Source: Rubrobacter indicoceani (GTDB lineage Bacteria; Actinomycetota; Rubrobacteria; Rubrobacterales; Rubrobacteraceae). From it: DNA of 64,000 bases. Shown here piece after piece: positions 14,146 through 57,686 of this stretch. The first letter of the stretch is position 1. Each line of letters opens with the position of its first letter. Location: NCBI RefSeq assembly GCF_003568865.1, contig NZ_CP031115.1:1488001-1552000 (forward strand), written 5' to 3'. Made by a program: the position numbers and the translations under genes. The notes beneath the pieces were generated by a model. That model did no database searches and was not told the origin of the DNA. It worked only from the letters and a program-made list of their open reading frames with translations.

Positions 14146-14864
14146 TACGTTCGCCTCCTAACGGCTGGCTCACCCTCCTCTATCAAAACTCGCCCGATCC
14201 GAACTATGGTCGAACCTTCCTCGACCGCAACAGCGTAGTCGCTGCTCATCCCCATGGAGAGTTCGGAAAGATCGAAATGAGGGCTCCAGCTTTGCCGGAG
14301 CCGCTCACGAACCTCCCTGAGCCTCGCGAAAACATATCGTACATCGCTCGCCCGTTCAACCGCCGGAGCTATGGTCATGAAGCCCGCGACGTCCACTTTC
14401 CCCCCGGTCCCGGCCGCCGCCTCCAGCAGCTCCTCTACCTCAGCTTCAGCTACGCCGTACTTTGCTTCCTCACCGCTCACGTTTACCTGCAGAAGTACCT
14501 TTGCCGGGTTCTCGGCCCGTTTTGCAATTTCCTTTACGAGCCGTATGGAGTCTACCGATTGGATGTTCTCGACGTGAGAGATCACGTCTTTCACCTTTCT
14601 GCGCTGAAGATGCCCGATGAAATGCCACTCGAAGTCCGCCCCGAAGCGGGCCTGCTTCTCGCTCAGTTCCTCGGCGCGATTCTCCCCGACGAGCTTAACC
14701 CCGGCCTCTTTAAGGGCTTTCATCTGATCCGCATCGTAGTACTTGCTCGCCACGAGTAGCTTCACCTCCTCCGTCCTGCGACCGGATCTCTCCGAAGCCC
14801 GGGCGATCTCTTCCCCGACCCCGTGAAGCCGCTCCCGGAGCAGGTCTGAAGAGACCCCGATCAC
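14145..14864 (-). CDS. PLP homeostasis protein (YggS/PROSC family)
   Basis: Single-domain alanine-racemase-like TIM barrel that binds pyridoxal phosphate and buffers its level, without known catalysis. PLP lysine in LLVASKYYDAD; other family marks are LVGENRAEEL, WHFIGHLQRRK and the phosphate-binding end SMGMSSDYAVAVEEGST. The GTG at 14864 forms a GTGA overlap with the pgeF stop and follows GGTGGGGG, giving 239 residues; the frame extends to 14900 but only into pgeF. Confidence 0.9.
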   Translation of the reverse strand: MIGVSSDLLRERLHGVGEEIARASERSGRRTEEVKLLVASKYYDADQMKALKEAGVKLVGENRAEELSEKQARFGADFEWHFIGHLQRRKVKDVISHVENIQSVDSIRLVKEIAKRAENPAKVLLQVNVSGEEAKYGVAEAEVEELLEAAAGTGGKVDVAGFMTIAPAVERASDVRYVFARLREVRERLRQSWSPHFDLSELSMGMSSDYAVAVEEGSTIVRIGRVLIEEGEPAVRRRT

Positions 14865-15661
14865 GTTCCCCCACCACCCGACGGCCTCGCGATGACGCAC
14901 AGGTTACGTCCGGTCTTCGGTTTCTGGGTGCGGTGGGAGAAGAACAGGTCGCCCCGGCATCCGGTACAGAGACCGGTATCTACTATATCCCCGACCCCGG
15001 CCCGTCTCAGATCCACCGCGATGGCTTCGGCGATATCCAGTCGGCGACCGCTGACGACTTCCTCTCCGAACTCGCGGGCGAAGTCATCCGCTATCTCCTG
15101 AGACACTTCGTAGCAGCAACGCCGGATGCACGGTCCGATGTACGCCGCCGGAGCCCCCCCGGACGGCTGGACCATCCCCCTGGCCGCCTCGCCCGAGATC
15201 CCCGCGAGGGTCCCCCGCCAGCCGGAGTGGACCATGGCCACCACATCCCCCGCGACAAGCGCGACCGGGGCGCAGTCCGCCACCCCGATGGCGAGGCTCA
15301 GGTTCTCCCTGGAGGTAAAAAGCCCGTCCGCCACCCCCGAGAAACCTCCGGCCTCGACCTCTACCACGTCTTTCCCGGCGACCTGATCCACCCAGGCCAC
15401 CGGGTAACCGCCCATCGCGGACCTTATCCTTGCAAGGTTTTCGTCGACGGCCTCCGCCGTATCCCCCATCTTCCTTGAGACGTTGAGGCTGTCGAAGGGG
15501 GTTTTGGAGACACCGCCGAGCCGGGTGAAGAAGCGTACATCAACGCCCTCGGGTGCGGGGCGCGGCTCGATGTAGACCGCGCCCGAGTGAGATACCCCCA
15601 TCTCGGCGCGGTCCCCGCTCTGCGTTTTGATCCCGTCTCTATCTGCGTGTGGCAACGCCAC
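14861..15661 (-). CDS. pgeF: Peptidoglycan editing factor PgeF (multicopper polyphenol oxidase family, DUF152)
   Basis: Family enzymes correct peptidoglycan stems carrying L-Ser instead of L-Ala, and some members act on purine nucleosides. Metal-site motifs are visible: GVADCAPVALV, MVHSGWRGTLAGI and YIGPCIRRCCYEV. 266 residues from the GTG at 15661; an ATG 20 codons later would still retain the domain, so the start is uncertain. Position between ftsZ and yggS is conserved in Gram-positive division clusters. Confidence 0.9.
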   Translation of the reverse strand: MALPHADRDGIKTQSGDRAEMGVSHSGAVYIEPRPAPEGVDVRFFTRLGGVSKTPFDSLNVSRKMGDTAEAVDENLARIRSAMGGYPVAWVDQVAGKDVVEVEAGGFSGVADGLFTSRENLSLAIGVADCAPVALVAGDVVAMVHSGWRGTLAGISGEAARGMVQPSGGAPAAYIGPCIRRCCYEVSQEIADDFAREFGEEVVSGRRLDIAEAIAVDLRRAGVGDIVDTGLCTGCRGDLFFSHRTQKPKTGRNLCVIARPSGGGGT

Positions 15662-52893: not shown

Positions 52894-54282
52894 CTATTTC
52901 TCTTCCCAGAACGGATGCGTATACCCCATGTCGCTCAGGATCCGACGCAGCTCCAGCATCGCCGTGTAGGTCGGGAGAACGTAGAGCGTCTCCCCCGCAG
53001 GCGTCGCGGCGAGCCCTTTTTCAAGGGCTTTGCGGGCATCGGACTCCACGTCTGAGACCGGGATCTCGGCGTACTTGAGCCGGACGGCCATGTCGTCGGC
53101 GCGGATGCCGCCGGTCCGAAACTCTGTTCTGCGTTCCCGGTCGGGCCGGTTCAGCATCTCGAAGTCAACGTCCCAGAGCCACGATACGTCGCGTCCGTCG
53201 GCGTCGCGGTCGTTTATGGAGATAAGGACGTGCTTCGCCTCGTCGCCGAGCACGAACGTTCTGAGCACCTCGTTGAAGCCGACCGGGTTTTTTATAAGCA
53301 GCAGAAAGACCTCTTTGTCGCCGGCTTTCACCCGTTCGACGCGCCCGAACGCCCCGCCGAACTCCCCGAGAGACTTTGCAACGGTCTGCGTACCGACGCC
53401 GACCATCCCGGCAACGCCCGCTGCGGCGAGAGCGTTGTAGATGTTGTAGAGACCGGGCAGCGTGACCTTCACGTTCTCGGAACCGCCGGGAGCTTCGAGC
53501 CGGAACGACGCCCCGCGAGAGCCGTCGAGCCGGACGTCGGTCACGCGGTAGTCGGGCTTCGGGCGGGCGAAGTCACAGTTCGGGCAGGCGTAGTCGCCCA
53601 TGTGTCCGAAGTAGATCGCCGCGTAGTCGAGCGGTGTTCCGCATACGGGGCAGTCCTTTGAGTCGGCGACGTGCTGCAGGACGCCTGTGTCGAGAGAAGG
53701 GTCTTCTATGCCAAAGTAGACCGCGTCGGGTCGGTTCAGGCCGAGGTGCGCCACGAGCGGGTCGTCGGCGTTCAGAAGAACCCTGCCATCGGCTGGAAGG
53801 TCGGGGAACGCCGAGGCGATCACCCGGCCCGTGTACGAAAGCTCTCCGTAGCGGTCGAGCTGGTCTCGAAACAGGTTCAGCACCGCAAGAACGCGCAGCG
53901 GTACGTCGGCGGCGACCTTCGGGACGCTCGCCTCGTCCACCTCGAAGAGCCCGATCTCGGAGGTTGGTTTCCCTTCCAAGTCCGAGTCCGCGAGAAGCGA
54001 GGCCGTCACCCCGGTTACAAGGTTTGCGCCGGTTGAGTTGCTGACCATGTCCAGCCCGGCGGCTTCGAAGATGCGGGCGACCATGCGCGTCGAGGTCGTC
54101 TTACCATTTGTCCCGGTCAGAGCGACGGAGCCGAGCGGCAGACCGCGAGCGAGCCGTGCAAGAACCTTCGGGTCTACGCGTCGGGCGACCACGCCGGGAA
54201 CGGTCGTGCCGCCGCCCGTCCCGACGGCGCGGCTTGCGGTCCGGGCAAGACGGGCCGCCGCGAGGGCCGCTGCGAACCGCAG
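52894..54282 (-). CDS. murT: Lipid II isoglutaminyl synthase subunit MurT
   Basis: Mur-ligase-like subunit that, with the amidotransferase GatD, amidates D-Glu of lipid II. P-loop LTGTNGKTTSTRMVA; the MurT-type four-cysteine zinc insert (DCPVCGTPLDY ... DYACPNCDFARP); C-terminal DUF1727 domain with NPVGFNEVLR and RDADGRDVSWLWDVDFE. No ATG, GTG or TTG lies between the upstream stop and the family N-terminus; the CTG at 54282, just after the MBL-Rieske stop, is my tentative start (462 residues). A GTG comes only about 45 codons further in. gatD, usually the next gene, is absent. Confidence 0.88.
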   Translation of the reverse strand: MRFAAALAAARLARTASRAVGTGGGTTVPGVVARRVDPKVLARLARGLPLGSVALTGTNGKTTSTRMVARIFEAAGLDMVSNSTGANLVTGVTASLLADSDLEGKPTSEIGLFEVDEASVPKVAADVPLRVLAVLNLFRDQLDRYGELSYTGRVIASAFPDLPADGRVLLNADDPLVAHLGLNRPDAVYFGIEDPSLDTGVLQHVADSKDCPVCGTPLDYAAIYFGHMGDYACPNCDFARPKPDYRVTDVRLDGSRGASFRLEAPGGSENVKVTLPGLYNIYNALAAAGVAGMVGVGTQTVAKSLGEFGGAFGRVERVKAGDKEVFLLLIKNPVGFNEVLRTFVLGDEAKHVLISINDRDADGRDVSWLWDVDFEMLNRPDRERRTEFRTGGIRADDMAVRLKYAEIPVSDVESDARKALEKGLAATPAGETLYVLPTYTAMLELRRILSDMGYTHPFWEEK

Positions 54283-54287
54283 CCTTT

Positions 54288-55904
54288 CTAGAACGACGGC
54301 GGCCCCCCGCCGTTCACGGTGGCGGAGGCGACCCCGACGCCGTTCTTCTCGTACTCCTCCTTCGGCTGAGTGAAGAGCTTGGCCCCGTCGGAGGTCAGGC
54401 ACTCGCCCGTCTGGAGGTCGAACTGCCAGCCGTGCAGGGTGCAGGTGAGGATGCCGTCCTCCTCCTCCCCGAAGCGCGTGAGGTCGGCCTTGAGGTGCGG
54501 ACACTGCCGCTGCACCATGAAGTTTCCGCACTCCCAGAGCTGCCTGACGGGGGCCGACTGTGCATAGTATTCCTCCGAAAAAGCGAGACGTTCCTTATCC
54601 AGAACCTTGAAAAAGTTATAGACGTACTCGTTGTAGGCACCCTTGCGCTTCGCGGAGAAGCGGCAGGAAAGGAAAAGGGTGTTGATCCAGTCCTTCTCCT
54701 CGTTGACGATGCAGTACTCCACCAGAGCCGGGTCCATCCTGAAACGATAGTCCCACTTCTCATCGTTGTACGGCCCGACCGTCCGGCCCTGGAAGTCTAT
54801 TATGATCTCCTCGCGGTCTCTGTCCTGATCAGGGCCGCCGAGATCAAACAGAACCCGACCGTTGACCCCGACGCAGTTCAGGTCGGCTTGCGCCAGAAGC
54901 GGCTCGAACCACGCCTTAAGCGCGGGCAGTATCTCGACCTCGCCGCGCGGCCAGCCTGCCTTTTCGGCCTCGAGTTCCGGTCGCCAGACCTCGCGCAACC
55001 TCTCCAGATAGGCGCGTTTCTCCGAGAATATACGCTCGACTTCCCTCTCCGAAGTCGGGTGGGCGAGGCTGAGTTCGTGACCGGCGACCGTTGCCTCGGA
55101 GCCGGGGATCAGGAGATGACCGTTCTCGACGCCATGTTCCTTGAGGTACTCGATAAAGACCGTCTGGTCGGGGAAGATGTTGGACTCATGGTTCTCGAAG
55201 TCGTTGAGGTGGAAGAGGTCATCGTCGAGGAACATCGGCGGTCCGGCGGACGGGATGATGTGCGTGGCGCCGATTTGCTTTACGTAACGCAGGGCGCGGG
55301 CGAGCTGATTGGCGCGCTTCTGCCTGCCCAAAGCGTCTTTCGCCTTGTCCGGCATCTCGTAGACCATCGGGTACCAGATCGCTCCGGAGAACTGCAGGAG
55401 GTGGGCGTCGAACGGGCCGAACTCTTCCAGCGGCTCGAAGTCTATTGGGCGCGAGTCGTTCTGGTCGAAGATGCGCGTCTCGCCGTCGTCCACGCAGAGC
55501 CCGGAGTCGCCGAGCGGGCCGTCGGTCGGCGCGGTGAGGGCCGGGACCATTATGCGGAGGCCGCTTTCGAGCGTCATCGGGGTGTTGTTCTGCGTGCGAA
55601 CGAAGTTCGTAAAACCAAGCCTGCGGTATTCGCGCTCCATCAGGTCGAGCGGGTAGTCGGGGAGGATAACCTGCGTCTCTTTCGAGACGTGGTTCTTCAG
55701 GAACTCCTCATCGAAGTGGTCGCGGTGGAGGTGCGAGACATAGAGGTAGTCGGGGTTCGAGATCTTCTCCAGGTCAAGGTCGCGGTTCGAGGGAAACGGG
55801 ATCCACGACGCAAAGTACGCCGGGTTAAACCAGGGGTCCGCGAGGACGGAACCGTACCTCGTCTCGATAAAGAATCCAGCGTGCCCTACGGATGTGATCT
55901 TCAA
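54288..55904 (-). CDS. MBL-fold plus C-terminal Rieske protein
   Basis: 538 residues with two recognisable domains. The first 260 or so residues are a metallo-beta-lactamase fold (ITSVGHAGFFIET; metal motif SHLHRDHFDEEF near residue 58). The last 80 hold a Rieske [2Fe-2S] site: C468-x-H470 and C488-x2-H491 (CPH and CTLHGWQFDL). The middle (WDYRFRMDPALVEYCIVNEE) I cannot assign. CMP-Neu5Ac hydroxylase combines the same two domains in the opposite order, so a hydroxylase-type redox enzyme is a guess. Five bases upstream of murT's likely start. Substrate unknown. Confidence 0.85.
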   Translation of the reverse strand: MKITSVGHAGFFIETRYGSVLADPWFNPAYFASWIPFPSNRDLDLEKISNPDYLYVSHLHRDHFDEEFLKNHVSKETQVILPDYPLDLMEREYRRLGFTNFVRTQNNTPMTLESGLRIMVPALTAPTDGPLGDSGLCVDDGETRIFDQNDSRPIDFEPLEEFGPFDAHLLQFSGAIWYPMVYEMPDKAKDALGRQKRANQLARALRYVKQIGATHIIPSAGPPMFLDDDLFHLNDFENHESNIFPDQTVFIEYLKEHGVENGHLLIPGSEATVAGHELSLAHPTSEREVERIFSEKRAYLERLREVWRPELEAEKAGWPRGEVEILPALKAWFEPLLAQADLNCVGVNGRVLFDLGGPDQDRDREEIIIDFQGRTVGPYNDEKWDYRFRMDPALVEYCIVNEEKDWINTLFLSCRFSAKRKGAYNEYVYNFFKVLDKERLAFSEEYYAQSAPVRQLWECGNFMVQRQCPHLKADLTRFGEEEDGILTCTLHGWQFDLQTGECLTSDGAKLFTQPKEEYEKNGVGVASATVNGGGPPSF

Positions 55905-56019: not shown

Positions 56020-57159
56020 TCAGATTCTCGGCTGGGTAGACATCTCCTGCCGCGATCGCATCGCGATGGACTGCAACAGCCCGAGGCACAGCAGGCTCGT
56101 TACAAGGCTCGACCTGCCGTAGCTGATAAACGGCAGCGGAATACCGGTTACGGGCATGATTCCGAGCGTCATCCCGACGTTCACGAGGACGTGAAAAAGA
56201 AAGATCGCCGCGATGCCGACCGAGATAAGGACCCCGAACCGGTCGCGGGAGATACTCGCGATGTGCAGTATCCGCCAGATAAGGACAAGGAAGAGAACCA
56301 GCAGCAACATACACCCGGCGAACCCCAGCCGCTCACCGAGGTTGGCGAAGATGAAGTCGGTGTGATCCTCCGGCAGAAAGCCGAGGTTGGCCAGGGTCGT
56401 TGCTTCTATTCCCTTGCCCGTCAGCCCGCCGGAGCCGACCGCGACCTTTGACTGCATCACCTGGTACCCGATGTCGCCGGAGCCTTCCTGGTCGAGAAAC
56501 GCCGTCAGACGGTTCATCTGGTACTCCTCAAGAACCCCGCCCTTAAGGACCGCAACGACACCGACGATTCCCGTTACGGCGAGCGCGGCGATCTGGCGGA
56601 GCCTGGCCCCCCCGATAAAGATCATCGCAGAGAAAAACGCGGCAAAGACAAGCGCGGTCCCGAGGTCGGGCTGCAGAAAGACCAGCATCCACGGTACGGA
56701 GATAAGAGCTATTGACTTCATCAGGGTCGAGTTCTCCGCGATGTTCCTGTCGGCAAAGAACGCGGCCATGACAAGGATCATGAATATCTTGGCGAACTCC
56801 GAGGGTTGAAACTGCACCGGCCCCAGGACTATCCAGCTCGTGGAGCCGTTGATGGTCGTTCCGCCGGCGAGCACGCTCAGCAGGAGCAGGATCGTCAGAC
56901 CGAAGAGCATCCACATCTTCTGCTTCCAGATCCGGTAGTCAACGAGGGCGAGCGGTATCGCGACCATGACCCCGAAGACAAAGCCGAGGGCCTGATCCGC
57001 CGCGTACTCCTGACGCTGGTCCGTTCCGGCCACGTAGACCGCAAAGATACCGAACGCGCACAGGGCAAGGGTCGAGAACAGCAGGACCGGGTCCAGCGAC
57101 CGCCAGCGGCTCAAGTTGCCGAAAGACGCTCCGGTGTCAACGCGGGTGAGGCTGCTCAA
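56020..57159 (-). CDS. rodA: RodA, SEDS-family peptidoglycan polymerase of elongation
   Basis: Lipid II glycosyltransferase of the MreB elongasome. About ten membrane helices; SEDS motifs LPEDHTDFIFANLGERLGF and GIPLPFISYGRSSLVTSL. I start it at the TTG 57159, six bases after AGGAG and overlapping the mreD stop (TTGA), giving 379 residues; the frame extends to 57222 but only inside mreD. Found with mreBCD rather than in the dcw cluster, which fits RodA rather than FtsW. No elongation PBP2 gene follows it here. Confidence 0.92.
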   Translation of the reverse strand: MSSLTRVDTGASFGNLSRWRSLDPVLLFSTLALCAFGIFAVYVAGTDQRQEYAADQALGFVFGVMVAIPLALVDYRIWKQKMWMLFGLTILLLLSVLAGGTTINGSTSWIVLGPVQFQPSEFAKIFMILVMAAFFADRNIAENSTLMKSIALISVPWMLVFLQPDLGTALVFAAFFSAMIFIGGARLRQIAALAVTGIVGVVAVLKGGVLEEYQMNRLTAFLDQEGSGDIGYQVMQSKVAVGSGGLTGKGIEATTLANLGFLPEDHTDFIFANLGERLGFAGCMLLLVLFLVLIWRILHIASISRDRFGVLISVGIAAIFLFHVLVNVGMTLGIMPVTGIPLPFISYGRSSLVTSLLCLGLLQSIAMRSRQEMSTQPRI

Positions 57160-57686
57160 CGGCTGCTCCTGACTTTGTTCGTGCTGCTCGTCCTGCCCGA
57201 CCTTCCGGCTCTTAAAAACCAACCGCCGATTAAATACGCAAGGATTCCGTTTACCAGAGCATCCGGGATGATACCGAAGAAAAGGTACTCCGCAAACGGC
57301 GGGGCTTCAAGCCCGGCGAAGCTCGTGCCAAAGAAGTTGACTATATCGTAGGCGGCTACCGAGAGCGCGACGACCTGCGCCATGATGAACTTTCTCGCCC
57401 CGCGCCGTCCCGCCGCGTCGGCGCGAATAGCGAGCGTCGCGGCGAGAAGCCCGGCCAGAGAGCCGATTCCGAACAGCCCGCCTCCAAAGGCGTCGAAAAG
57501 GATTCCGGCAAAGAACCCGAGCAGCAGGGCCTGCATCTGACGCATCCCGAGAACGGCGAAGACCACGCCGAAGATCATGAACTTCGGGGAGATCCAGCCA
57601 AAAGTCAGATACGGGCCGACAACGACCTCCAGCACCGCCGCGCAGGCAACGATAAGCGCCGCTCTGACAACCGATACGGAATGCAT
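57156..57686 (-). CDS. mreD: Rod-shape protein MreD
   Basis: 176-residue membrane protein with about five hydrophobic helices (RAALIVACAAVLEVVVGPYL at the N-terminus; LGFFAGILFDAFGGGLFGIG in the middle). Low sequence conservation across the family; the call rests on the order mreB-mreC-mreD-rodA and topology. Partner of MreC in the elongation complex. Confidence 0.85.
   Translation of the reverse strand: MHSVSVVRAALIVACAAVLEVVVGPYLTFGWISPKFMIFGVVFAVLGMRQMQALLLGFFAGILFDAFGGGLFGIGSLAGLLAATLAIRADAAGRRGARKFIMAQVVALSVAAYDIVNFFGTSFAGLEAPPFAEYLFFGIIPDALVNGILAYLIGGWFLRAGRSGRTSSTNKVRSSR

What the first reader, a model, noticed from the sequence alone, without database searches (positions are those of the whole stretch)
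54288..55904. MBL-Rieske protein coupled to murT: candidate uncharacterised redox enzyme
Seen: an N-terminal metallo-beta-lactamase fold (HLHRDH) and a C-terminal Rieske site (C468/H470, C488/H491) in one 538-residue protein, separated by a region I cannot name, ending five bases before the likely murT start. Known: CMP-Neu5Ac hydroxylase also joins a Rieske and an MBL-like domain, in the opposite order. Inferred: this may be an oxygenase or hydroxylase acting on a sugar nucleotide or cell-wall lipid intermediate, given its partner MurT. The context is suggestive only.
Basis: partly seen in the sequence, partly recalled or inferred. Interest (0 to 1): 0.7.

Follow-up and report, generated by a model that had tools for sequence, protein, structure and literature searches.

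The report
NamH muramic-acid hydroxylase beside murT
The gene encodes a known kind of cell-wall enzyme, NamH, which in mycobacteria adds one oxygen atom to the muramic acid of the cell wall; here it sits in a Rubrobacter-type bacterium whose wall is not known to carry that change.

Summary
Window 54288-55904 (minus strand, 538 aa, TTG start) is an MBL - SCP2-like - Rieske protein. The 'region I cannot name' is Pfam SCP2_Rv3818 (155.6 bits, cut-off 28.2). Rv3818 is M. tuberculosis NamH, the characterised hydroxylase that turns N-acetyl- into N-glycolylmuramic acid. A 2018 paper already reports a namH homologue in Rubrobacter radiotolerans, the window's sister species, and notes no evidence of the modified sugar there.

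The link to murT is real here but local. In family f1, 5 of 39 genomes have namH. Where the junction is readable (4 of 5) it follows rodA; 11 namH-less relatives have rodA next to rplU (109-185 bp gap). murT follows namH only in the window's genus, where murT has left gatD; two genomes of another genus have pgeF there. None of 41 namH loci outside the family had murT nearby.

Open and testable: whether Rubrobacter peptidoglycan carries N-glycolylmuramic acid. Family assignment about 0.95; biochemical role here about 0.87.

The parts
54288..55904 (-). namH: MBL - SCP2-like - Rieske protein, 538 aa, TTG start
55080..55904 (-). MBL-fold domain, residues 1 to about 275
   Evidence: Lactamase_B_3/B_2; AlphaFold2 model matches CmlA diiron hydroxylase Z 19.5 (rmsd 4.4, 240 aligned), FrsH Z 18.3, NAPE-PLD Z 18.8
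55716..55733 (-). HLHRDH metal-site motif, residues 58-63
   Evidence: H58, H60, D62, H63 invariant in 29 of 29
54558..54932 (-).
   Evidence: PF25451 155.6 bits; model of residues 286-520 matches SCP2 structures, best Z 9.1, 105 aligned
54393..54515 (-). Rieske [2Fe-2S] domain match, residues 464-504, ligands C468/H470 and C488/H491
   Evidence: PF00355 34.3 bits, cut-off 20.3; ligands invariant; matches Rieske ferredoxins Z about 8 over 67 residues
55911..55915 (-). AGGAG ribosome-binding site, six bases before the TTG start
   Evidence: read from sequence
52894..54282 (-). murT, lipid II isoglutaminyl synthase subunit; start codon uncertain (CTG at 54282 or an overlapping upstream start)
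56020..57222 (-). rodA, directly upstream of namH
   Evidence: TIGR02210 372.7 bits

Best explanation
The gene is namH. Its product is an iron-dependent monooxygenase that hydroxylates the methyl group of the N-acetyl function of a cytoplasmic muramic-acid precursor (UDP-MurNAc or UDP-MurNAc-peptide), giving the N-glycolyl form that then enters peptidoglycan. Proposed mechanism: an external reductase reduces the C-terminal Rieske cluster, the cluster passes electrons to an iron site in the N-terminal MBL fold, the reduced iron activates O2, and one oxygen is inserted into the acetyl C-H bond; the SCP2-like domain holds substrate or positions the domains. Shown here: the three domains, invariant metal-site residues, and full-length homology to proteins of genera that carry N-glycolylmuramic acid. 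Known from the literature for homologues: namH is needed for N-glycolylation in mycobacteria. Inferred: iron in the MBL site, electron path, substrate, and activity in this organism.
For: PF25451 (named for Rv3818) matched at 155.6 bits against a cut-off of 28.2. Rv3818 = NamH, the N-acetylmuramic acid hydroxylase, described as UlaG-type domain plus C-terminal Rieske (PMC10050696; PMC6194230; PMC3605390). Full-length homologues of 48-51% identity lie in Nocardia, Rhodococcus and Tsukamurella, and one of about 44% in Microbacterium. Nocardiaceae and Mycobacteriaceae are described as having N-glycolated muramic acid, and N-glycolylated mureins were measured in Microbacterium strains. PF25451 is absent from all 14 control genomes, including Corynebacterium glutamicum (named among the controls), whose family is N-acetylated. 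The best profile matches of the MBL half in the PDB are oxygen-activating diiron monooxygenases, FrsH (8a90, 1.9e-10) and CmlA (2e-05). Classical MBL hydrolase motif 5 (P-x-H, from general knowledge) reads P-x-A-GPP in all 29 sequences, while D128, D133 and D150 are invariant.
Against: No enzyme assay or cell-wall analysis exists for this organism in what I could read. PMC6194230 states that no evidence for N-glycolylmuramic acid is known in R. radiotolerans. The characterised M. smegmatis or M. tuberculosis sequence was not compared directly; the link runs through the Pfam model and named Mycobacteriales relatives. The AlphaFold2 models are of medium confidence (mean pLDDT 75.8 and 75.5), and domain distances were not measured.
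Confidence: 0.87

Rival explanations
1. A NamH-fold oxygenase with a different substrate in this lineage, for example lipid II, a teichoic-type polymer or another N-acetyl sugar nucleotide.
For: No MurNGlyc is reported for Rubrobacter. For mycobacteria the step at which NamH acts is itself unsettled: lipid II was proposed, while interaction with MurF suggested the last soluble precursor.
Against: All motif residues conserved across the family are kept, and the nearest rows of the tree are 56-85% identical to the window protein. The neighbours rodA and murT are peptidoglycan genes.
Confidence: 0.08
2. A zinc MBL hydrolase of the UlaG/UPF0173 kind in which the Rieske domain has a regulatory or redox-sensing role.
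For: The model's MBL half superposes on UPF0173 and other hydrolases as well as on CmlA; Lactamase_B_3 is the Pfam match.
Against: The terminal His of motif 5 is missing in 29 of 29. The PRK00685 metal-dependent hydrolase model scores 23.8 against a cut-off of 144. The namH gene product of mycobacteria is a hydroxylase.
Confidence: 0.03
3. A decayed or silent copy without activity.
For: Sporadic presence (5 of 39 genomes in the family); no reported product.
Against: Open frame, ribosome-binding site, all metal and Fe-S ligands intact, 85% protein identity with the sister species over 533 residues.
Confidence: 0.02

Closest known systems
NamH (Rv3818 / M. smegmatis namH), N-acetylmuramic acid hydroxylase
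   Same: Domain order MBL - SCP2-like - Rieske, length, HxHxDH and CxH/CxxH ligands, PF25451 match far over cut-off
   Different: Gene neighbourhood: rodA-namH-murT here. In Rhodococcus ruber and Tsukamurella records the homologue lies by a lysophospholipid acyltransferase and a HAD hydrolase, with serS 3-4 kb away
CMP-N-acetylneuraminic acid hydroxylase (CMAH)
   Same: Works like it: MBL fold plus Rieske, N-acetyl to N-glycolyl hydroxylation of a sugar nucleotide (PMC4819959 for the reaction; the Rieske domain from general knowledge)
CmlA and FrsH diiron monooxygenases
   Same: MBL fold used for O2 activation; best solved-structure sequence matches of the MBL half and Z 19.5 / 18.3
   Different: The match covers only the MBL half; different substrates; the CmlA residue E377 (mutated in 5kil) aligns with a non-acidic residue in NamH
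Alkylsulfatases SdsA1 / Pisa1
   Same: SCP2-like domain resembles their C-terminal domain (Z 7.4-8.4); also MBL + SCP2-like proteins
   Different: Zinc hydrolases, no Rieske domain (general knowledge)

Membership tests
NamH (N-acetylmuramic acid hydroxylase) | MBL, SCP2_Rv3818 and Rieske domains in this order in one chain | tested here: met
   same PF25451 + Rieske in 29 of 29 homologues
NamH (N-acetylmuramic acid hydroxylase) | PF25451 above its curated cut-off | tested here: met
   155.6 bits against 28.2
NamH (N-acetylmuramic acid hydroxylase) | Intact MBL HxHxDH and Rieske CxH...CxxH ligands | tested here: met
NamH (N-acetylmuramic acid hydroxylase) | Full-length homology to named Mycobacteriales copies | tested here: met
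   48-51% over 95% of the protein in Rhodococcus, Nocardia, Tsukamurella
NamH (N-acetylmuramic acid hydroxylase) | Direct comparison with the characterised M. smegmatis / Rv3818 protein | not tested
   sequence not obtained by name; linked through the Pfam model only
NamH (N-acetylmuramic acid hydroxylase) | Hydroxylates UDP-MurNAc (or UDP-MurNAc-peptide) in an O2-dependent way | not testable with these tools
   needs biochemistry
NamH (N-acetylmuramic acid hydroxylase) | N-glycolylmuramic acid in the organism's peptidoglycan | not testable with these tools
   none reported for R. radiotolerans
CMP-Neu5Ac hydroxylase (CMAH) | Rieske domain N-terminal, MBL domain C-terminal | tested here: not met
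   order is reversed here; CMAH order taken from the finding and general knowledge
Ring-hydroxylating Rieske oxygenase alpha subunit | Catalytic domain of that family after the Rieske domain | tested here: not met
   Rieske lies at the C-terminus (464-504 of 538) and no such domain is found
PRK00685-type metal-dependent hydrolase (NF001911) | Equivalog score over cut-off | tested here: not met
   23.8 bits against 144; motif-5 His absent
Conserved namH-murT gene pair | Adjacency kept across namH carriers | tested here: not met
   only in G000 and G001; not in G003/G372 nor at 41 loci outside the family

The most novel reading that the evidence does not exclude
In the R. radiotolerans group NamH and MurT have become one coupled unit (junction of only a few bases in the window, murT moved over 1.1 Mb from gatD), so that N-glycolylation and iso-glutamine amidation act on the same precursor in a physical or translational complex, giving a mycobacterial-type doubly modified wall in a radiation-resistant lineage far from mycobacteria.
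Probability: 0.1. Interest if true: 0.45.

Novelty: new member of a known kind. Interest (0 to 1): 0.27.

Why it matters
It turns an apparent unknown into a precise, cheap prediction: Rubrobacter of this group should have N-glycolylmuramic acid in the wall, a chemical marker associated with mycobacteria and relatives. A positive result would show the modification outside the groups where it is recorded, in environmental bacteria, and would speak to what it is for. It also offers copies of NamH from a lineage that includes a radiation-resistant species for structural work: no solved structure matched the NamH profile over its full length.

Tried and rejected
Literature searches for Rubrobacter with glycolyl/muramic or acyl type found only PMC6194230. 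Raymond et al. 2005 itself is not held. A foreign origin of murT together with namH was considered and rejected: MurT of G000/G001 groups with the family's other MurT proteins (91/89 support); the window's MurT is 65-69% identical to those and 33-47% to MurT outside the family. A first murT query was in the wrong frame; the correct frame was used. A sigma-70 consensus scan found no convincing promoter.

Full report
What is there. The ORF at 54288-55904 is on the minus strand and encodes 538 residues from a TTG codon six bases after AGGAG. Pfam gives three domains in order: Lactamase_B_3 (2-73; the MBL fold runs to about 275 in the model), SCP2_Rv3818 (325-449) and Rieske (464-504). A separate AlphaFold2 model of residues 286-520 (pLDDT 75.5) matches sterol carrier protein 2 structures (best Z 9.1, 105 aligned, rmsd 3.2) and Rieske ferredoxins (Z about 8 over 67 residues).

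What it is. Rv3818 is NamH, the N-acetylmuramic acid hydroxylase that makes N-glycolylmuramic acid (PMC10050696; PMC6194230). The window protein matches the Rv3818 family model at 155.6 bits (cut-off 28.2) and has full-length relatives of 48-51% identity in Rhodococcus, Nocardia and Tsukamurella. Metal-site residues H58, H60, D62, H63, the acidic residues D128, D133, D150 and the Rieske ligands C468, H470, C488, H491 are invariant in 29 homologues. The family is found in 37 of 396 genomes of the phylum sampled and in none of 14 control genomes.

How it likely works. The best PDB sequence matches of the MBL half are the diiron monooxygenases FrsH and CmlA, and the model superposes on CmlA (Z 19.5, rmsd 4.4); many MBL hydrolases score equally, so the fold alone does not decide. 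The classical motif-5 histidine is replaced (P-x-A-GPP in all 29). Inference: electrons pass from the Rieske cluster to an iron centre in the MBL domain, which activates O2 for hydroxylation of the N-acetyl methyl group. The substrate is either UDP-MurNAc or a later soluble precursor; among the Mur ligases tested, M. tuberculosis NamH interacted only with MurF, which its authors read as action before lipid I (PMC3605390).

Organism. G001, of the same genus as the window's genome, carries a 51,047-base contig whose first 12,000 bases are 100% identical to the Rubrobacter radiotolerans plasmid NZ_CP007517.1 of the same length. The window's own plasmid stretch had no match. The species of the window was not identified. 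PMC6194230 already lists a namH homologue in R. radiotolerans and says no evidence for MurNGlyc was known there.

Neighbourhood. In the whole family, 5 of 39 genomes have namH: both genomes of the window's genus (g1) and 3 of 10 of g3. In G000, G001, G003 and G294 it follows rodA; in G372 the contig starts inside namH. In eleven namH-less relatives with both genes on one contig, rodA and rplU are 109-185 bases apart, a clean empty site. After namH comes murT in g1 but pgeF (TIGR00726 at 128.7 bits, under its cut-off of 141.15; PF02578 at 207 bits) in G003 and, by tblastn, G372. In eight other genomes of the family surveyed by tblastn murT lies within about 1.3 kb of gatD, and in three more 5-9 kb away; in G000 and G001 they are over 1.1 Mb apart. 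MurT of g1 is the family's own protein, so the gene moved. None of 41 namH loci from other families (18 of them Glycomyces) has murT within the stretch read, usually 8-10 kb each side. namH of g1 and g3 form one clade (100/99), although an Obg+RodA tree does not join g1 and g3 directly (weak support). Early gain with losses, or transfer by recombination at the rodA flank, are both possible.

Verdict. The sequence observation is confirmed and the functional guess was good, but the enzyme family is known, and its presence in this genus is published. What remains open is the chemistry of the Rubrobacter wall.

Noticed in passing
54282-54294: murT has no ATG, GTG or TTG between the namH stop and its conserved N-terminus; it may start at CTG 54282 or inside namH in another frame.
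   Followed up: partly
L123:6244-6900 (G000 C1 near 402262): gatD lies about 1.14 Mb from murT, while most relatives keep murT and gatD together; murT has moved to the namH site in this genus.
   Followed up: yes
L094:10629-11450 and L096:1559-2239: In another genus of the family pgeF (peptidoglycan editing factor) takes the place of murT after namH; the window's own pgeF is at 14861-15661.
   Followed up: partly
L005:1483-2952: A 489-aa MBL relative of NamH (35% over residues 3-190) without a Rieske or PF25451 match, beside an amidohydrolase-like ORF.
   Followed up: partly
L142:5001-6758 (Microbacterium plasmid NZ_CP072877.1): A namH homologue annotated as three separate ORFs, perhaps a broken copy or sequencing errors.
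   Followed up: no
Halobaculum and Halolamina plasmids (hits H8-H13): Archaeal MBL proteins resembling only NamH residues 1-221 (25-28%).
   Followed up: no
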